DNA of 64,000 nucleotides from positions 1 to 64,000 of the forward strand of contig JAFYXN010000006.1 in NCBI GenBank assembly GCA_017546145.1, read 5' to 3'. The notes below the pieces were generated by a model. It made no database searches, was not told the DNA's origin, and saw only the letters and a list, made by a program, of their open reading frames with translations. Below, piece by piece: positions 13,531 to 39,034 of the stretch. The stretch's first letter is position 1. Every line of letters begins with the position of its first letter. Origin of the DNA: Clostridia bacterium. Lineage in GTDB: Bacteria > Bacillota > Clostridia > Monoglobales > Monoglobaceae. Both the position numbers and the translations under genes were made by a program.

Positions 13531-13606
13531 TCCTCCTTAGCTCAGTCGGTAGAGCGCATGACTGTTAATCATGATGTCGCTGGTTCAAGCCCGGCAGGAG
13601 GAGCCA
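13531..13606 (+). tRNA. tRNA-Asn (GTT)
   Basis: A 76-nt cloverleaf. The acceptor stem is TCCTCCT/AGGAGGA with G73 and an encoded CCA. The D-arm is GCTCAGTCGGTAGAGC. The anticodon arm is CATGA-CTGTTAA-TCATG with anticodon GTT at 13564-13566. The T-arm is GCTGG-TTCAAGC-CCGGC with one wobble pair. Confidence 0.97.
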
Positions 13607-13611
13607 GAAAA

Positions 13612-13638
13612 AAGCACTTCAGTTGAAGTGCTTTTTTC
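13612..13638 (+). terminator. tRNA-Asn terminator
   Basis: AAGCACTTC-AGTT-GAAGTGCTT followed by a T-run, 5 nt after the tRNA. Confidence 0.85.
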
Positions 13639-13768
13639 AATGAAATTTGCCTGAGGCAAGTGAAATACACTTCGTGTATGAAATATTGCTGCACAATATG
13701 AAATATGCCTTGCGGCATATAAAAAGGCAAATTTTATTTCACATCGAACGCAGTGAGATATTTCACCA
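13639..13768. repeat. Multi-hairpin repeat element with TGAAAT spacers
   Basis: Four short hairpins in a row (TTGCC-TGA-GGCAA; ATACAC-TTC-GTGTAT; ATATTG-CTGCA-CAATAT; ATATGCC-TTGC-GGCATAT). Each is introduced by TGAAAT, at 13641, 13661, 13679 and 13699. On the far side ATTTCA appears at 13736 and 13760. The first TGAAATTTGCC can also pair with GGCAAATTT at 13726-13734, closing the hairpins into a cruciform-like fold. There is no coding potential. It lies between tRNA-Asn and a convergent gene. Confidence 0.75.
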
Positions 13769-18143: not shown

Positions 18144-18164
18144 ACATGTAATTTGAATATCACA

Positions 18165-18418
18165 AAACAACTATGACGAAGACGGTCGGACAATGAATCC
18201 TAAAGAGAGTTGGCGGTTGCTGCAAGCCATCGGTGAAATTTTCCAATGACCCATCACTTCTGAGTTGGAGGACCGAAAGCATTAAGCGAGTAGACTCCTT
18301 CCGTAATGCTGCGTTAAAGCAAGGGCTTGATAGAGCCTACAAAGTGGCGGAAATTTTCCGCAATTTGAGTGGTACCGCGAGTTGTATAACCCGTCTCAAA
18401 ATCTGAGGCGGGTTTTTT
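18165..18418 (+). promoter_or_regulatory. T-box riboswitch leader, specifier probably AUC (Ile)
   Basis: The T-box core TGGTACCGCG is at 18370-18379, and a terminator (ACCCGTCTCA/TGAGGCGGGT plus T-run) is at 18389-18418. Stem I closes as AACT (18169)/AGTT (18263), then the ATGA/TGAG kink-turn, then GAAG (18178)/CTTC (18257). Just before CTTC, in the specifier-loop position, lies ATC (18253-18255) followed by A. The variable base of the T-box UGGN is U, which pairs with an A73 discriminator; tRNA-Ile has A73. Uncharged tRNA would favour antitermination and expression of the ligase fusion. The T-box call is firm; the Ile assignment is my reading of the fold. Confidence 0.88.
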
Positions 18419-33350: not shown

Positions 33351-33449
33351 ATTTAATACCTGCCTTTATATAAATTTTATGTTTACTAATTTAATATTTT
33401 CAGATAATCCTACATTTAAGTTTGTGTCAAGTGGGTCCAGAACATCTAA

Positions 33450-34301
33450 TCATTTCAACGCAATCAACTCACTTACAACTATTACAGGCTTATTATTTAT
33501 TCTAAATGGGAAAATGCTGTTGCCAATCCCTCGACTTACTATCATACTTGTTGTGCCATTTTCATAAAGACCATCGTAGTATTTTGGCAGTAATCCTTGT
33601 CCCGGAGCAACCAAACCTCCTACAAAGGGGAGGATAAATTGTCCACCGTGTGCATGCCCCGACAGAACCAAATCAGCTTTATCCGCATACGCCTCAAAGT
33701 ACTCCGGTCTGTGTGCTAAAAGAACCTTGTAATTTGCGTTTTCCGGGACAATGCGCATAAGTTGATGTGAAATATTTTGTTCCATAGCATCATCAACAAG
33801 CTCCATTCTAAATCCCGGATCGTTTATTCCAATGATGGTTATTGTATCAGTTCCAACAGATATATCTGCTTTCTCATCTTCAAGTACAGTCACCCCTGAC
33901 TGCTTCAGCCTTGTTATTAAATGGTTGTATTCGGTATTACTAAGTCTTGATTCGTGATTTCCGTTCACATAATATGTAGGTGCAATCTTTACTGCACTTT
34001 CTGCAAAATATACAGCCTTATCTATGTTTGTTCTTCTTGAATCTACAATATCTCCCGTAATTACAATAATATCTGCGTCTGCTTTTTGTAACAAAGAAAT
34101 AAGCTTTATGTTGTTCTTTCCAAACTCTGTATTATGTAAATCTGATATCTGCGCTATTCTAAACCTATCAAATTCCATCGGCAAAGATTCAGATGAAACA
34201 ACTATTGTATTTATTTCCAAAGCACTGTTACCATAGACAACCCATATAATAAACAAAACTATAATAACAAGTATTGCAAATAGAATATATTTTTTAATCA
34301 A
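33450..34301 (-). CDS. Membrane-anchored metallophosphoesterase (YkuE-like)
   Basis: 283 residues. One N-terminal membrane helix (about 5-25) precedes a calcineurin-like domain with the five motifs: ISDLHN (D-x-H), GDIVDSRR (GD), 'GNHESR' (GNHE), 'LLAHRPEY' and 'LSGHAHGGQF' (GHxH). The 'PGQGLLPKYYDGLYENGTTSMIVSRGIGNSIFPFR' region (read in parts) is typical of the YkuE/UDP-diacylglucosamine-pyrophosphatase-like branch. It probably hydrolyses a lipid- or wall-linked phosphoester; the substrate is unknown. A broken copy of the 34-38 kb repeat lies 100 nt upstream. Confidence 0.88.
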   Translation of the reverse strand: MIKKYILFAILVIIVLFIIWVVYGNSALEINTIVVSSESLPMEFDRFRIAQISDLHNTEFGKNNIKLISLLQKADADIIVITGDIVDSRRTNIDKAVYFAESAVKIAPTYYVNGNHESRLSNTEYNHLITRLKQSGVTVLEDEKADISVGTDTITIIGINDPGFRMELVDDAMEQNISHQLMRIVPENANYKVLLAHRPEYFEAYADKADLVLSGHAHGGQFILPFVGGLVAPGQGLLPKYYDGLYENGTTSMIVSRGIGNSIFPFRINNKPVIVVSELIALK

Positions 34302-34404
34302 TATATTTCACCTTGCTTTCGACAATATTCGGTACTTTTTATAAAATTGGCAAACAATTTATATTCTAACTGTTTTAGCAAATTACGTTTATTTCGTAAG
34401 TTAA

Positions 34405-34475
34405 TTATATAAAGACTGTATAATCTATGTGCCCTTTGTTTTAAAACAAGCTCAAATCTGGTCAGGATTAAAAAC
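34405..34475. repeat. Cassette-boundary repeat, copy 1 (broken)
   Basis: TATATAAAGACTGTATAATCTATGTGCC matches the repeat core apart from two bases near its end (read in parts: TATATAAAGACTGTATAATCT, 34407 on). The left half (TTCGACA...) is replaced by unrelated sequence; a displaced TTTCGACAATATT occurs at 34317-34329. The tail GGTCAGGATTAAAAA (34460-34474) aligns with the AGTTARGACAAAAA tail of the other copies. Confidence 0.75.
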
Positions 34476-34477
34476 TT

Positions 34478-34509
34478 AACCGATGCAGACAGAAAGTTCT
34501 ACATCGGTT
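34478..34509 (-). terminator. Terminator after yafQ
   Basis: AACCGATGCAGA and TTCTACATCGGTT pair with one mismatch. On the - strand it lies 5 nt after the yafQ stop and is followed by AAGTTTTTAA. Confidence 0.7.
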
Positions 34510-34513
34510 TTAG

Positions 34514-34789
34514 TTAAAACAAATCGCTATGAGTACCAGTTCGAGTTAAGCCTAACACCAGTAAATCTTTCTCAATTCTGTAAATTAACAACCAATTCGG
34601 TTCAATATGACATTCTCTTGACCCTCTATAATCTCCGGATAGCGGATGATCAAGATATTTTTCAGGAAGTTTATCTCCGTTAGCTAAAATATCAATAACT
34701 TCCTTCAATAAATCCATATTATACCCTCGTTTTTTAGCAAGTTTATAATCCTTTTTAAAACGAGTTGACATTTCTATTTGGTACTTCAT
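34514..34789 (-). CDS. yafQ: YafQ/RelE-family mRNA interferase toxin
   Basis: 91 residues. YafQ signature: TRFKKDYKLAKKRGYNM at the N-terminus, LPEKYLDHPLSGDYRGSRECHIEPNW-type centre (with the catalytic His residues), then LLIYRI and a terminal 'TGTHSDLF' carrying the conserved His. It cleaves mRNA in the ribosome. The start overlaps the end of the dinJ-like gene by 4 nt. A terminator and a broken repeat copy follow. Confidence 0.9.
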   Translation of the reverse strand: MKYQIEMSTRFKKDYKLAKKRGYNMDLLKEVIDILANGDKLPEKYLDHPLSGDYRGSRECHIEPNWLLIYRIEKDLLVLGLTRTGTHSDLF

Positions 34790-35061
34790 GATTCTAAGTC
34801 CTCAAAAAGCTCTTTTGTACTTGAATATCTTTTCGCCGGTATCTTTCCACTTAACATATCGTCCATTTCCTTAATAGCAGCAACAGTTTCTGCATTTGGA
34901 ATATCAGTCGCAATTTCAAAAGGTATTCTGCCTTGTCTGACAACCTGCCTTAAAAACATATTCATAGCCGTTGTCATATTAAGCCCCATATCAGAAAACA
35001 TTGCGTCTGCCTGTTTTTTCAATTCAGTATCCATCCGAATACTCATATTTACAGTTGCCAT
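34786..35061 (-). CDS. dinJ: RelB/DinJ-family antitoxin
   Basis: 91 residues. The N-terminal ribbon-helix-helix (ATVNMSIRMDTELKKQAD, then MFSDMGLNMTTAMNMFLRQ) is the DinJ pattern, followed by 'GRIPFEI'. It neutralises the YafQ toxin encoded downstream and represses its own promoter. The promoter (35093-35121) and an imperfect palindrome around its -10 box lie between the gene and repeat copy 2, so the module carries its own control region. Confidence 0.92.
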   Translation of the reverse strand: MATVNMSIRMDTELKKQADAMFSDMGLNMTTAMNMFLRQVVRQGRIPFEIATDIPNAETVAAIKEMDDMLSGKIPAKRYSSTKELFEDLES

Positions 35062-35092
35062 AATATATTACCTCCTTACATTTAGTATATAC

Positions 35093-35121
35093 ATTGTACC
35101 ACAAAATATGTGCATTGTCAA
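35093..35121 (-). promoter_or_regulatory. dinJ-yafQ promoter with overlapping palindrome
   Basis: On the - strand TTGACA and TACAAT are separated by 17 nt. The -10 box lies in an imperfect palindrome (TACATTTAG-TATA-TACATTGTA, 35077-35098), a fitting operator for the RHH antitoxin. The promoter lies outside the repeat copy upstream. Confidence 0.8.
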
Positions 35122-35147
35122 TGCGCTTTTTGACTACAATGACCTGT

Positions 35148-35240
35148 TTTCGCCAAATTTCGACAATCCTTATATAAAGACTGTATAATCTAGATGCCAA
35201 CTTGAGTTATAACATCGTCATATCAAGTTAAGACTAAAAA
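35148..35240. repeat. Cassette-boundary repeat, copy 2 (complete)
   Basis: Parts in + orientation: TTTCGCCAAATTTCGACAA; a near-palindrome at 35163-35184 centred on TTATATAA; GTATAATCTAGATGCC; an imperfect dyad AACTTGAG...ATCAAGTT; and the tail AGTTAAGACTAAAAA. It ends exactly at the base before the dinD stop codon (35241). Confidence 0.85.
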
Positions 35241-36100
35241 TTATTCATCAAGCATCAAAGTTCCTTCTTTTGCTTTTTGTTTCAGTCTTTTCATCTGCTC
35301 TTTTTCAATTTGAGCAATGCTCTTTTCGGGAGTTGGCAAATCTTCAGGCATTGTACCGCCAATTTCTTCAATAGCTTTTCTGACTTCTCTGCCAACTGTA
35401 TTATGAACTTTGGTGGCAGTTTCTGCATTATCAACATTATCTTTTCTCAACTTTTCCTCTGTCTGTGAAATTCTGAAAAGATTTGCGATAAGTTCTGTGC
35501 TGCCCATATAATCAAGAATTTTTTGTCCTACTGCAAGACCTTTTCTTTTGTGGATATCTTCAACATCAAGTCCACCATAAAGCCCCATATAACCGGCATT
35601 TTGAAAAATTGCAAATTCCTCATTCGTTATAACACCGGCATTTCTTGCAGTTTCCGCCAGAAGCTGATTCCATTGTTTTATATCACCGCGAACAACCAAT
35701 CTTCTGCTATCTTCATCAAGCTGATTAAATCTGTCCGCAACTTCTTGTCTGTAAGTCTGTATGGCAAAGTATGTTTGCCCAAGTGCAATAACTTCTTTTC
35801 TTGGGTCGCCATTTTGAACAATCAAATAACAAGCATATCTTGTAAGTTCATAATCCAAGACAGGTTTTTCGGTTGCACCTGCTTTCACGATTTTCCTGAC
35901 CTCAGGAAAATCGCAATTAATATCGTGTCCGCTATTTTCACAAGCAATCATTGCACGCTTTATAACCTTATGAAAATTTTCCCATTTGTTATAATCTAAA
36001 ACAATCGCCAATTCTCTTGCAAACCAATATTCTGTACGTCTTCTTTAATATGCTTTATATCTTCAAAGCATTTGTATTCTTTTGCAATCAGATTGCTCAT
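35241..36100 (-). pseudogene. dinD: dinD (DNA damage-inducible protein D), frameshifted
   Basis: The ATG at 36100 (AGAGG site upstream) opens a frame that reads EYKCFEDIKHIKED and then goes off; the expected continuation, TEYWFARELAIVLDYNKW, is in another frame. The break is near 36037, where one base is missing between GAC and GTACAG (expected GAC-GGT-ACA). Downstream the frame is open for 250 codons with clear DinD features (YACYLIVQNGDPRKEVIALGQ, then YFAIQTYRQE). DinD is induced by DNA damage and inhibits RecA filaments in E. coli. A restart at 36011 would give a 256-residue protein lacking the first 30 residues. A sequencing error is the alternative explanation. Confidence 0.85.
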
Positions 36101-36120
36101 TTTATTACCTCTTTTCTTTT

Positions 36121-36210
36121 TCAACATTTTTCGACAGTCTTTATATAAAGACTGTATAATCTAGATGCCACTAATTATAGATCTTGTTCATATCGTTTTA
36201 GGAACAAAAA
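36121..36210. repeat. Cassette-boundary repeat, copy 3 (complete, perfect palindrome)
   Basis: The central part at 36134-36155 is a perfect 22-bp palindrome (ACAGTCTTTAT and its reverse complement). GTATAATCTAGATGCC follows, then a dyad region and the tail GTTTTAGGAACAAAAA. It lies between the dinD start and the GIY-YIG stop codon (14 nt away). Confidence 0.88.
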
Positions 36211-36224
36211 TCAGTTAATAATTA

Positions 36225-36662
36225 TTAACTATCCTTGCCATATTTTTTTATAAACTCTTCCATCCATTTTAACTGTTCTAGATCAACCGTCTTTTTTGTT
36301 CTATATAATTTTTTTAATTCTTCTCCAATTGGTACAATGCCATTTTCTCTGTAATATTCACCACAAAGTGCATTTATTGGTCCTTCGGCTAAATCTACAT
36401 TATATCCATTTTCGCACGAATCATAATAATCGATATAAAAGGTTTCAAAATATTCTGCTTCTTCTTTGTTTAAACCTTCCATCAAAACTAAATGTTCAAA
36501 ATTATCCCATCCGTATTCCTGTACAACTTTATAAAAAGCCTGTCTTTTGTATCCTTCTCCAGCATACCATCTTTTATTAGCAGCCTGCTTAGTTATTCCT
36601 ACATATGTTTTAGCAGTAATTTTATTTATATGGCAATATACTATATACTCTTTTTTATCCAT
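36225..36662 (-). CDS. GIY-YIG nuclease family protein
   Basis: 145 residues. The GIY-YIG core is at the N-terminus: EYIVYCHINK (as 'YIVY' for GIY), KTYVGITK (as 'YVGI' for YIG), a following Arg in NKRWYAGEGY, and a Glu further on (LNKEEAEYFETFYID). Proteins of this size with a degenerate GIY motif occur in phages and mobile elements. It probably cuts DNA. It shares a cassette with the Abi-alpha gene, 23 nt upstream, with no repeat between them, so the two probably work as one unit. Confidence 0.75.
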   Translation of the reverse strand: MDKKEYIVYCHINKITAKTYVGITKQAANKRWYAGEGYKRQAFYKVVQEYGWDNFEHLVLMEGLNKEEAEYFETFYIDYYDSCENGYNVDLAEGPINALCGEYYRENGIVPIGEELKKLYRTKKTVDLEQLKWMEEFIKKYGKDS

Positions 36663-36685
36663 TCTTCATCCTCAAAATTTTCAAA

Positions 36686-37465
36686 TTACAAACAAACTTT
36701 TATAAAATTTTTACCAAATGCCGTTAACTCAAATTTACCTTTTTTAATTTCGATTTTTTCATTTTCTTTAACAGGTTTATTTAATAACTGTTTAACAAAT
36801 GAATGTTCTTCTAATTCTTTGTATAACTTTTCATCTTTAAAATATGTTCCATATGGAATCTCAATCAATTTTAATCTTTCAAAATTATCTAAATACGAAA
36901 ATATCTCATTAGGACAATCACAAACATTTTCAGCAATATCAGTAAAATTATGAACTAACGTTATGTATCCTCCCTTTTTTATAGTTAAAACAACATCGAT
37001 CAACGGATAACCATTTTGATGTGAAAGTTTTTTCAACAACTTTGCCTCATCTGGAGTAAGCTGTTTAATAATGTCAACAAATGAAGGATGCACATTATAT
37101 TTCGTATCAATATTCATAGAAGAAGCAAGAAGATTTGCGTACATATCCCTTAACTCTTCACTGTCAAAGCAATACGAAATTTGTTGCAACGCTGGAACTG
37201 CCACATATCCTTCAGGTGAAACAATTTTTTCCTCAGGCACATCTTTCATTTTGTATGCCAATAGTTCCCTTGTTTTTTCAAAATTATATTGTTTTTCTGC
37301 AACCCATAACTTCGGTTTTGCAAGCGCCACATCAATAGCTTGAAAAGGAAGAGCAATAATATTTCCAATAGATTTAAATGTAGGTTTTAATGTATCGTTA
37401 TACCCTTCAACTGCAACTGCTTTAGCAGATTCAACTAAAAGTTCTTTCCCCAATTCTTCTGGCAT
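36686..37465 (-). CDS. Abi-alpha (DUF4393) family protein, putative abortive infection
   Basis: 259 residues. The family pattern is visible: TLKPTFKSIGNIIALPFQA near the N-terminus; 'VSPEGYVAVPALQQISYCF' and 'SEELRDMYANLLASSMN' in the middle; and VHPSFVDIIKQLTPDEAKLL. Pfam names this family Abi_alpha after a lactococcal abortive-infection link; the mechanism is unknown. A phage-defence role in this window is inference from family and neighbours. It is followed by a GIY-YIG gene in the same cassette. Confidence 0.78.
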   Translation of the reverse strand: MPEELGKELLVESAKAVAVEGYNDTLKPTFKSIGNIIALPFQAIDVALAKPKLWVAEKQYNFEKTRELLAYKMKDVPEEKIVSPEGYVAVPALQQISYCFDSEELRDMYANLLASSMNIDTKYNVHPSFVDIIKQLTPDEAKLLKKLSHQNGYPLIDVVLTIKKGGYITLVHNFTDIAENVCDCPNEIFSYLDNFERLKLIEIPYGTYFKDEKLYKELEEHSFVKQLLNKPVKENEKIEIKKGKFELTAFGKNFIKVCL

Positions 37466-37534
37466 TTATTTTTCTCCTTTGTGTAAAAATATTTTTATTA
37501 GTTTATATTACGATTAAATAACTTATTGTTATAT

Positions 37535-37584
37535 TCGTCAAAATTCGACAATCTTTATATAAAAACTGTATAATCTAGATGCCA
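37535..37584. repeat. Cassette-boundary repeat, copy 4 (overlaps a stop codon)
   Basis: TCGTCAAAATTCGACAATC, then TTATATAAAAACTGTATAATC, then TAGATGCCA. The near-palindrome spans 37548-37569. The TAG stop of the neighbouring 110-residue ORF is the CTA at 37575-37577 inside the repeat. The dyad and the AGTTARGAC tail of the other copies are absent; coding sequence takes their place. Confidence 0.85.
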
Positions 37585-37907
37585 ATGGTTTTTAAATCAA
37601 TTTTTAATTCATCACAGCAAGTATCTAAATTTCCATACCAACTCTCAGAAATATGCTTAATCTTTTTCCAGTCATCTTTTAACGTTATATTATCTATCGT
37701 AGTTGTATTGTACAATTCGTCCAGCGATTTAAACTTAATTTCTCCACTTTGTTCTTCAACAGTTCCGCATCTTTGAAAAGTCGGTCCATCATCATATTTA
37801 ATAATCATATATTCGTCATCTTTATCTTCAAAATATATACAAAATTCTGGTTCGCCGGGGAATAATTCATATATTTTTTTAAATATCTCATAAGTTACTG
37901 TTTTCAA
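37575..37907 (-). CDS. Hypothetical protein, 110 residues (cassette gene)
   Basis: No family recognised. The protein is acidic and aromatic-rich (FPGEPEFCIYFEDKDDEYM, then YDDGPTFQRCGTVEEQ), with no signal peptide or membrane helix. Its size and composition recall immunity-type or anti-phage accessory proteins, but that is weak. The start follows an AGAGGTG site. Its final codons and stop lie inside repeat copy 4, which could mean that cassette joining trimmed or fused its end. Confidence 0.6.
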   Translation of the reverse strand: MKTVTYEIFKKIYELFPGEPEFCIYFEDKDDEYMIIKYDDGPTFQRCGTVEEQSGEIKFKSLDELYNTTTIDNITLKDDWKKIKHISESWYGNLDTCCDELKIDLKTIGI

Positions 37908-37931
37908 AATAGCACCTCTTTTTCAACCTCT

Positions 37932-38021
37932 CTCAACAATTTTCGACAACCTTTATATAAAGACTGTACAATTTAGATACCGGACTTTTTAACTGAAGTT
38001 CATCTTAAGTTAGGACAAAAG
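37932..38021. repeat. Cassette-boundary repeat, copy 5 (complete)
   Basis: CTCAACAATTTTCGACAACC, near-palindrome at 37946-37967, GTACAATTTAGATACCGG, dyad TTTAACTGAAG...CTTAAGTTA, and tail AGTTAGGACAAAAG. It ends 1 nt before the stop codon of the 85-residue ORF. Confidence 0.85.
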
Positions 38022-38022
38022 A

Positions 38023-38280
38023 TTATTTTGTAACCTCTACAATTCCTTTTGATTCTAAAAATCCAATAAGCTTTTCAAGGTATGCTAATCGTTCATGGTT
38101 TATCGGCGGATTTTCCATATACCCTAAATCTCCACCAACACTTTCATAGCTTTCCTCACAATAACACATATGCAAAAGATATCCCCACTCCAATTCAACA
38201 TTATCTTCATTCAATAACTTTTCAAATGTTTCAATCGGCTCATTTTCAAACATCATCATGATTAAATCATGTTCTTTCAT
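38023..38280 (-). CDS. Hypothetical protein, 85 residues (cassette gene)
   Basis: No family recognised. Acidic, with a hydrophobic Met-rich start (KEHDLIMMMFENEPIETF), a CYCEESYESVGG stretch and a helical tail (HERLAYLEKLIGFLESKG). The AAAGGAGACC site upstream of the ATG is partly formed by the end of repeat copy 6. It is the first cassette in the direction of transcription. Confidence 0.6.
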   Translation of the reverse strand: MKEHDLIMMMFENEPIETFEKLLNEDNVELEWGYLLHMCYCEESYESVGGDLGYMENPPINHERLAYLEKLIGFLESKGIVEVTK

Positions 38281-38293
38281 TCCAAAGGTCTCC

Positions 38294-38320
38294 TTTCGCC
38301 AAAATTCGACATTCTTTATA
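38294..38320. repeat. Cassette-boundary repeat, copy 6 (half site)
   Basis: TTTCGCCAAAATTCGACATTC and TTTATA match the left half of the repeat (closest to copies 2 and 4). Beyond the palindrome centre the match stops and unique sequence begins. On the - strand TTGTGC, 17 nt and TATAAA span the junction and could be a promoter for the array. Confidence 0.75.
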
Positions 38321-38464
38321 TCCTCTTGTCAAATCACGCACAAAAACTATTTTTATTTAGTATAGCACAGACAAAAATTCATTACAATACATAAATCTGT
38401 TTTTTAATAACTGTTTTTTAATAACTTTTGTTTAAAACAAAAAATTACAACATATAGCAAAAAA

Positions 38465-38483
38465 GATGCTCTTTGCGAGCATC
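38465..38483 (-). terminator. spoIIIA operon terminator
   Basis: GATGCTC-TTTGC-GAGCATC hairpin. On the - strand it begins 5 nt after the spoIIIAH stop and is followed by TTTTTTG. The stretch 38321-38464 before it holds nothing recognisable beyond AT-rich sequence. Confidence 0.85.
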
Positions 38484-38488
38484 CTTTG

Positions 38489-39034
38489 CTATTTTTTGTT
38501 TGAAATCTTTATTTGAGTTGTTTTTGCGCCTGTTTGTTCTACCACTATATCCTTTATCTGTGCAACACCCTCTGCCTGAAGTTCGTCTGTTTTTACCACA
38601 ACTCTTACACTGTCCCGGTCTACAAATGCCACACAATCCAAGTAGCCTTTTGCTATAACCATATTTTCAATTGCCGTTTCATCCTCCATATTTTTTGCAT
38701 ACATCTCAAGCTTTTCAGCATTTTTTTCTGCAATCTGTTCACTTTGTTCTCCGTCTTGAGTTGACGCCGCAATAAGCTCTGCCGCTTCACTTCTTGCACA
38801 ATCACGCTCATAACGTGCCCTTGCAAAATAATCGTTATCGGTTTCTTCCAAAACGTTATCCTCTATCTTGGAAATCTGCTCTGAAGAATTTTCCAAAACG
38901 CTGTCATTCATAACAGCAACTGCATCCCCATGCCGTTCTGCCGTCCAGCGATAATACCCTGCAACCGCAACCAAGACCGCAAGTCCTGCTATAAGAATTT
39001 GTTTACTCCTTATACTTTTAAAAAATTTTTTCAT
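38489..39034 (-). CDS. spoIIIAH: Stage III sporulation protein AH
   Basis: 181 residues from the ATG at 39034 (AAAGGTG upstream; the ATG at 39046 lacks a site). A short basic N-terminus, one membrane helix (ILIAGLAVLVAVAGYYRW), a charged linker and a C-terminal ring-building domain (MVIAKGYLDCVAFVDRDS, then TTQIKISNKK). In the established model it forms the mother-cell ring that binds forespore SpoIIQ. Last gene of the operon. Confidence 0.92.
   Translation of the reverse strand: MKKFFKSIRSKQILIAGLAVLVAVAGYYRWTAERHGDAVAVMNDSVLENSSEQISKIEDNVLEETDNDYFARARYERDCARSEAAELIAASTQDGEQSEQIAEKNAEKLEMYAKNMEDETAIENMVIAKGYLDCVAFVDRDSVRVVVKTDELQAEGVAQIKDIVVEQTGAKTTQIKISNKK

What the first reader, a model, noticed from the sequence alone, without database searches (positions are those of the whole stretch)
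34405..38320. Integrase-less gene-cassette array built on a novel ~90-bp repeat
Six copies or part-copies of one repeat separate five units, all transcribed on the - strand: DinJ-YafQ, dinD, GIY-YIG plus Abi-alpha, and two unknown small ORFs. The three complete copies (35148, 36121, 37932) lie 0-14 nt from the stop codon of the gene before them in transcription order, and all full copies have the same orientation. Each has TCGACA, a palindrome centred on TTATATAA, TATAATCTAGATGCC, an imperfect dyad, and an AGTTARGAC tail. This is the architecture of integron cassettes (ORF plus 3' recombination site), with typical cargo of TA and defence genes. The sites do not fit the canonical attC RYYYAAC/GTTRRRY boxes, and no tyrosine or serine recombinase is in the window. 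It may be a new recombination-site family or a relic (CALIN-like) array in Clostridia.
Basis: partly seen in the sequence, partly recalled or inferred. Interest (0 to 1): 0.87.

Follow-up and report, generated by a model that had tools for sequence, protein, structure and literature searches.

The report
New gene-cassette family in gut Clostridia
This stretch of a Clostridia-like bacterium's chromosome is a row of small genes, each ending in the same kind of short DNA tag; in other gut Clostridia the same gene-plus-tag units sit beside different neighbours, joined at one fixed base, so they are likely mobile gene cassettes moved by a still unknown enzyme and unlike the integron cassettes known so far.

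Summary
The repeat array is real and not chance. It belongs to a large family of gene cassettes: an exact pattern scan of one collection (84,980 species genomes) found the core in 92 stretches from 56 MAGs, all titled Clostridia or Oscillospiraceae bacterium. A cassette is a short leader, one or two ORFs and a 3' site. Three site types occur: A (about 29 nt), II and III (an A-like core plus a module of about 42 nt). In 104 ORF-bearing units, 125 of 130 ORFs face the site's way. The same cassette is found with different neighbours; homology stops within 0-5 nt of the joint in 17 of 29 close pairs. The window's dinD-like and DinJ-YafQ cassettes show this too. One cassette is 91.5% identical between genomes of two families. 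The sites are not attC (0 of 244 have the boxes). No integron integrase passed its cut-off in 60 genomes (without a positive control), and limited searches saw no recombinase around the sites. Mobility as units is well supported; the enzyme is unidentified, and RecA exchange between repeats remains a live rival.

The parts
38319..38345 (-). Type-A site (TTTTGTGCGTGATTTGACAAGAGGATA); joint between 38319 and 38318; left end of the array
   Evidence: 7 mismatches to the A consensus, the only hit in 64 kb at that limit; searches show the type elsewhere
38023..38280 (-). Cassette 1 (38318-37956): leader 38292-38316, ORF of 85 aa, unknown
   Evidence: no Pfam or PADLOC match
37956..37981 (-). Type-III site closing cassette 1 (3 mismatches); A-like core upstream (about 37996-38021, by eye)
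37575..37907 (-). Cassette 2 (37955-37558): ORF of 110 aa, unknown; its stop codon lies inside the site
37558..37583 (-). Type-III site closing cassette 2 (1 mismatch), without A-like core
36686..37465 (-). Cassette 3 (37557-36144), gene 1: Abi_alpha, PADLOC candidate defence protein PDC-S47
36225..36662 (-). Cassette 3, gene 2: GIY-YIG protein
36144..36169 (-). Type-III site closing cassette 3 (exact)
35241..36100 (-). Cassette 4 (36143-35173): dinD-like gene (name from the finding) in two frames: short 5' piece from 36100, main ORF 35241-36011; PADLOC PDC-S13; Pfam Bro-N below its cut-off
35173..35198 (-). Type-III site closing cassette 4 (exact)
   Evidence: the dinD-like end with its site occurs in L050 before a different unit
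34786..35061 (-). Cassette 5 (35172-34408), antitoxin DinJ (RelB family)
   Evidence: own promoter-like TTGACA-17-TACAAT at 35121-35093
34514..34789 (-). Cassette 5, toxin YafQ; terminator-like hairpin 34509-34478 follows
34408..34433 (-). Type-III site closing cassette 5 (2 mismatches)
33450..34339 (-). Possible decayed sixth unit: leader 34315-34339 and metallophosphoesterase 33450-34301, then an A-like core about 33411-33440 (by eye)

Best explanation
The window holds five one- or two-gene cassettes in a row, each ending in a short 3' site, and such units sit beside different neighbours in other genomes with the joint at one fixed base, so they are likely moved whole by a site-specific recombinase supplied from elsewhere in the cell. 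Shown: a cassette runs from two variable bases plus a leader (most often NNAAGAYTGTCGAA-3-TGTCGAAAGGAG) through the ORF to a 3' site of type A, II or III. Shown: the bases up to ..TATA stay with the upstream cassette, and the two bases after it stay with the downstream one in 14 of 25 close pairs. Inferred: the leader's AAAGGAG is the ribosome-binding site; an excised cassette is a circle closed at TATA|NN; it re-enters at the right end of a resident cassette or at a weak A-like sequence after a chromosomal gene. Inferred: the enzyme is a tyrosine recombinase acting in trans, because inverted arms (CAGTCTT and AAGAYTG; TTGACAAAATC and GATTGTCGAA) flank the joint.
For: Pattern scan: 92 stretches, 56 MAGs. 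Architecture: 130 units, 104 with ORFs, 125 ORFs in the site's direction and 5 against; median stop-to-joint 71 nt (III), 69 (II), 38.5 (A). Of 15,051 pairs among 174 joints, 52 share the upstream side only, 46 the downstream side only, 1 both. At 85% identity or more, homology ends 0-5 nt past the joint in 17 of 29 pairs and begins at -28 to -26, the edge of the shared core, in 17 of 25. The SGNH-type cassette of L115 and L060/L047 is 95% identical in two species; to its left only an A-like stretch is shared, and homology stops at TTTATA| on the right. L105 (G092, family f10) and L129 (G066, family f22) share a cassette at 91.5% over 600 bp (contig identity checked). Window cassettes: the dinD-like end is followed by another unit in L050; DinJ-YafQ is preceded by another cassette in G004 (L145), and its 3' part is followed by others in G004 (L155/L161) and RGIG379 (L104). 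Genes resembling DinJ-YafQ occur in G035, G018, G010 and G021, where the III pattern has no match.
Against: No recombinase was found near sites: home-made tyrosine and Y1 profiles and a short serine seed over about 650 kb (L041-L132) gave nothing significant. The conserved repeat itself ends at the joint, so RecA exchange between repeats would give the same break point. In 12 of 29 pairs homology runs 8-45 nt past the joint, which I put down to shared leaders; 2 of the 29 (L058-L059, L087-L117) have 22 nt or less to compare. Six of the 25 right-hand pairs start at -72 to -31 and two at +23 or +25; NN differs in 11 of 25. No circular form and no clean empty site was seen. Types II and III do not show the same arm spacing as type A. 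Many ORF-less pairs are copies of a few hairpin cassettes and are not independent. Some relaxed A matches (up to 7 mismatches) are probably chance.
Confidence: 0.55

Rival explanations
1. Host XerC/XerD moves the cassettes, as is assumed for dif modules: the sites would be divergent dif-like sites and need no own recombinase.
For: The most widely shared tyrosine-recombinase group is an Xer-like one of about 300 aa, in 13 of 17 genomes by my reading; the name Xer is my recall. No linked recombinase was found. dif modules are assumed to use XerC and XerD (passages of PMC13141974) and carry toxin-antitoxin genes (search listing).
Against: All six sites of the window face the same way, whereas dif modules sit between inversely oriented sites. 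By eye, types III and A lack the TTATGT arm of pdif; type II has TTATGT but the joint lies outside it. A Firmicutes-like dif pattern, recalled, gave no convincing site in 40 genomes, so the host dif is unknown.
Confidence: 0.17
2. Units are exchanged by homologous (RecA) recombination between dispersed repeats that are really intergenic regulatory or promoter elements; no dedicated enzyme exists.
For: The conserved core ends exactly at the joint, so exchange inside it gives the observed breaks. Type III with its leader reads as promoter-like on the opposite strand (TCGACA-18-TATAAT, 11 of 12).
Against: A cassette bounded on both sides in unrelated surroundings (L115) shares only a weak stretch of about 28 nt on the left. 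A 40-nt unit made of little but the core exists (L049). The core is joined to coding sequence so that it supplies the stop codon (37575; L119). Promoter-like matches in the region as a whole are no more frequent than in shuffles (22 against 21.8).
Confidence: 0.15
3. The cassettes are terminal-inverted-repeat transposons without transposase that insert at each other's ends (TA target), mobilised by a DDE transposase in trans.
For: Leader and right ends are imperfect inverted repeats by eye; some left ends carry AGGGACAAAA, the inverse of the TTTTGTCCCT of type A. A type-A end joined to the left end of a ParA-ParB element would make TTGACA-17-TATAAT, as in transposon circles (the comparison is recalled).
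Against: Strict co-orientation of ORFs (125 to 5); no target-site duplication demonstrated; I recognised no recurrent transposase among the ORF clusters printed or among the 25 of 63 Pfam families shown for 73 cargo proteins.
Confidence: 0.1
4. A decayed or very divergent integron (CALIN) with unusual attC sites.
For: Cassette architecture and cargo.
Against: 0 of 244 sites have RYYYAAC..GTTRRRY in either strand; type-III upstream folding z is -0.46 against -0.52 in control; 0 of 60 genomes pass the integron-integrase cut-off (no positive control).
Confidence: 0.03

Closest known systems
Integron gene cassettes / CALIN
   Same: One ORF (sometimes two) plus a 3' site, same orientation, tandem arrays, toxin-antitoxin, defence and unknown cargo, ORF-less units, units with different neighbours in different genomes.
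   Different: No IntI over cut-off, no attC boxes, no conserved site hairpin in type III, many small arrays and single units, three site types with a nearly invariant 26-nt core (partly ascertained by the search).
dif (pdif) modules of Acinetobacter plasmids
   Same: Small gene modules including toxin-antitoxin pairs, no own recombinase, shuffling.
   Different: Sites all face one way in the window, the joint lies at the 3' edge of the site, no XerC-6-XerD arm arrangement recognised, found in Clostridia MAG contigs and not in the plasmid collection searched.
MITEs / REP elements
   Same: Imperfect inverted ends, dispersed copies, hairpin-rich ORF-less units.
   Different: Carry single genes in fixed orientation and abut end to end at one base.

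Membership tests
Integron / CALIN | Integron integrase (IntI) in the genome | tested here: not met
   TIGR02249 over cut-off in 0 of 60 genomes, own included (own genome 89.5% complete); the 14 control genomes also gave 0 over cut-off, so there was no positive control
Integron / CALIN | attC R boxes RYYYAAC..GTTRRRY (consensus as given in the finding) | tested here: not met
   0 of 160 III, 0 of 39 A, 0 of 45 II, either strand (shuffled expectation 0.6, 0.1, 0.1, so the test says only that the boxes are absent)
Integron / CALIN | attC conserved as a folded hairpin | tested here: not met
   III z -0.46 (n 154), II -0.23 (47), control -0.52 (156); type A has a short dyad, z -1.09 (31)
Integron / CALIN | Cassette = ORF plus 3' site, same orientation, shuffled | tested here: met
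Integron / CALIN | attI site next to an integrase | tested here: inconclusive
   no tyrosine recombinase in the loci around sites; many MAG contigs end near sites
dif (pdif) module | Module bounded by inversely oriented sites | tested here: not met
   six sites of the window all on the - strand; elsewhere only same-strand neighbours were counted
dif (pdif) module | XerC arm, 6-bp spacer, XerD arm (TTATGTTAA-like) | tested here: inconclusive
   by eye against the table in PMC13141974; host dif not found
dif (pdif) module | Recombined by XerC and XerD | not testable with these tools
   needs binding or recombination assays
TIR transposon / MITE | Terminal inverted repeats and target duplication | tested here: inconclusive
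   imperfect inverted ends by eye; duplication not demonstrated
IS200/IS605 or REP moved by Y1 transposase | Y1 transposase in carrier genomes | tested here: inconclusive
   none in site-bearing G003, G004, G007, G043 (MAGs 68-89% complete), but present in other carriers such as G000, G002, G005, G006, G066, G092; none in the loci around sites

The most novel reading that the evidence does not exclude
A gene-capture and shuffling system of gut Clostridia unrelated to integrons: single-gene cassettes with three interchangeable 3' site types, cut at one fixed base by an unknown recombinase acting in trans, scattered over chromosomes as many small arrays and passed between bacterial families.
Probability: 0.45. 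Interest if true: 0.92.

Novelty: new variant of a known kind. Interest (0 to 1): 0.85.

Why it matters
Integrons are very rare in Firmicutes (IntegronFinder 2.0 reports one complete integron there and a few CALIN; passage seen). A separate cassette system in gut Clostridia would explain how these bacteria trade small toxin-antitoxin, defence and unknown genes, would give a site motif with which to harvest many uncharacterised mobile genes, and poses a sharp open question: which enzyme does it.

Tried and rejected
Recombinase hunt: TIGR02249 in 60 genomes; Pfam PF00589 in 17 genomes; a home-made Xer profile over loci L041-L132 (best hits E 0.1 and 0.9) and the window; Y1 in 100 genomes; Y1 profiles and a serine seed over the loci. 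A family of tyrosine recombinases of about 279 aa in several site-bearing genomes looked promising, but the fetched flanks hold no A, II or III site, only one leader-like match in L237, and the genes are followed by inverted ACCACATAAT..ATTATGTGGT-like repeats, so they look like invertible-promoter switches.

The ParA-ParB element that lies exactly after type-III sites was followed in the hope of an integrase at its other end; contigs end inside it, and the best relative (G047) did not settle it. The region downstream of spoIIIAH in relatives gave no usable empty site. Firmicutes dif pattern: uninformative. Viral contigs: 0 matches for five patterns. Plasmids and phages: no match to a 111-nt site stretch at E 0.01. 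Rfam: nothing over a gathering score at the sites (whole window); with a lax limit only weak hits, E 0.2-1.9 in 34200-38600, and in eight other loci hits that lie elsewhere or below the gathering score.

Literature: six searches aimed at it (two of them listed no paper) showed no title or abstract describing this repeat; two more were for comparison. Only open-licence PubMed Central papers were searched, so this is weak evidence. Papers: passages of PMC9024848, PMC8618304 and PMC13141974, outline with abstract of PMC5385486; the rest search listings only.
Full report
Observation. Reading the - strand, the window has five copies of one core, GGCATCTAGATTATACAGTCTTTATA, at 37956-37981, 37558-37583, 36144-36169, 35173-35198 and 34408-34433, with 0 to 3 mismatches. 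The same 64-kb scan lists four further matches, all at the limit of 8 mismatches; the reversed control pattern gives none at up to 8. A sixth joint at 38319 is a different site type.

A family, not a local repeat. The core with up to 3 mismatches occurs in 13 of 38 genomes of the family and 8 of 9 of the genus, own genome included, with no reversed-control hit. A longer pattern across the joint matched 14 of 100 relatives, again with no control hit. An exact degenerate scan of the collection of 84,980 species genomes returned 92 stretches, all held as L041-L132. By their titles they come from 56 MAGs (titles, recount), all named Clostridia or Oscillospiraceae bacterium: 39 RGIG titles name sheep, goat, cattle, buffalo, deer or yak gut, while 16 SIG titles and one other name no host.

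Anatomy. Aligning 155 copies (window included) shows at least 94% identity at 24 of the 26 core positions and an abrupt fall to 53% at the next base. Part of the invariance is ascertainment, because the same 26 nt were the search pattern. What follows the joint is heterogeneous: most often NNAAGAYTGTCGAA, otherwise AAGTTTGATATACAAGGGACAAAA, hairpins, the start of a ParA-ParB element, or unique sequence. Searching from the leader side revealed two further site types before the same leaders: type A, TTTTTTGTCCCTAACTTGACAAAATCATA, and type II, AAAAGGTTTGCATCTAAACCTTATGTGTCGCAAT. By eye, types II and III are related modules of about 42 nt placed after an A-like core. The leader repeats TGTCGAA at 10-nt spacing in 54 of 76 leaders tested. 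The leader motif with at most one mismatch is present after 78 of 160 III, 25 of 39 A and 16 of 45 II sites; shuffles of the III set give 4.15.

Cassettes. Between successive same-strand sites at most 3.5 kb apart there are 130 units: 104 with an ORF of 60 aa or more, with 125 ORFs in the site's direction and 5 against, and 26 ORF-less units of 94-257 bp. The last stop lies at a typical distance: median 38.5 nt before type A (18 units), 69 before II (18), 71 before III (66), with outliers up to 451. Pfam over 73 cargo proteins gives 63 families, of which 25 were shown; the commonest is DUF559 with 5 members, then AAA (4), PHP (3) and others with few. In the window the cargo is Abi_alpha (PADLOC PDC-S47), GIY-YIG, a dinD-like protein (PDC-S13), DinJ-YafQ and two unknowns.

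Movement. Of 15,051 pairs among 174 joints, 52 share the upstream side only, 46 the downstream side only and 1 both; no pair is in both lists. With at least 85% identity there are 29 and 25 pairs. Left-shared homology ends 0 to 5 nt after the joint in 17 of 29; the other 12 run 8 to 45 nt on, which I ascribe to similar leaders. Right-shared homology begins at -28 to -26 in 17 of 25, that is at the edge of the shared core; six begin earlier (-72 to -31) and two later (+23, +25). The two bases after the joint agree in 14 of 25 right-shared pairs. Two left pairs have 22 nt or less to compare and several pairs repeat the same hairpin cassette, so the counts are not independent events. The cleanest single case is an SGNH-type cassette (name by my reading), 95% identical in RGIG9545 and SIG450: its homology starts in an A-like stretch and stops at TTTATA|. 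A cassette shared by G092 (family f10) and G066 (family f22) is 91.5% identical over 600 bp (contig identity checked), which points to transfer between families.

The window's own units. The dinD-like end with its site (82% over 244 bp) is followed by another unit in RGIG7507 (L050). The DinJ-YafQ cassette (84% over 524 bp) is preceded by a hairpin cassette in G004 (L145); its 3' part occurs in G004 (L155, 82% over 309 bp), where it ends in a type-A site (L161), and in RGIG379 (L104, 76% over 102 bp), where a type-III site is followed by another leader. Gene pairs resembling DinJ-YafQ in G035, G018, G010 and G021 (65-69% identity) begin to match at window 35122-35123, next to the gene's own promoter-like sequence and not at a site, and those genomes have no III match. 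The own genome holds another site at C30 after a gene that I read as Fic-like.

Not an integron by test. No site of 244 has the R-box pair. Upstream folding of type III equals the control. TIGR02249 passes its cut-off in 0 of 60 genomes; the best full-size hits look like Xer proteins to me, but the 14 control genomes also gave none over the cut-off, so there was no positive control. Around sites (650 kb, L041-L132) no tyrosine, Y1 or serine recombinase was detected, with home-made profiles and a short seed of limited reach. Y1 transposases are absent from four carrier MAGs but present in others.

Mechanism. I commit to conservative site-specific recombination by a trans-acting enzyme, most likely a tyrosine recombinase, at TATA|NN between inverted arms. 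Shown: unit boundaries, exact joints in most close pairs, different neighbours. Inferred: circular intermediate, enzyme class, re-entry sites. RecA-mediated exchange between repeats predicts the same joint because the repeat ends there, and host XerCD would explain the missing enzyme; both are kept as rivals. The cassette in L115, the 40-nt unit in L049 and sites that supply a gene's stop codon (37575) favour a dedicated reaction.

Verdict. Six literature searches aimed at it showed no title or abstract describing this repeat.

Noticed in passing
L233-L240, L243-L245 (G007, G005, G008, G002, G043, G092, G066, G010): Tyrosine recombinases of about 279 aa followed by a region bounded by inverted ACCACATAAT..ATTATGTGGT-like repeats: likely invertible-promoter phase-variation switches.
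   Followed up: partly
L072 (- strand), L073, L121, L132, L192: An element that begins ParA-ParB-RelE-CpaE (genes seen in L072, names by my reading) has its left end exactly after a type-III site in four loci; joined to a type-A end it would form TTGACA-17-TATAAT.
   Followed up: partly
window 35160-35189, 36131-36160, 37545-37574 (+ strand): Across III|leader joints the opposite strand reads TCGACA-18-TATAAT, 11 of 12 to a sigma-70 promoter, pointing back into the upstream cassette.
   Followed up: no
window 38292-38316 and the other leaders: Two TGTCGAA at 10-nt spacing next to a likely ribosome-binding site resemble tandem Spo0A boxes (recalled, not tested); cassette genes might be under sporulation control.
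   Followed up: no
window 35996-36100: The dinD-like gene is split by a frameshift after about 34 codons; could be decay or a MAG assembly error.
   Followed up: no
L191 (G038:C144): A related ParA element end interrupts what I read as a large serine recombinase gene.
   Followed up: no
window 13531-13709 and 18164-18401: tRNA followed by a Gut-1 RNA, and a T-box leader.
   Followed up: no
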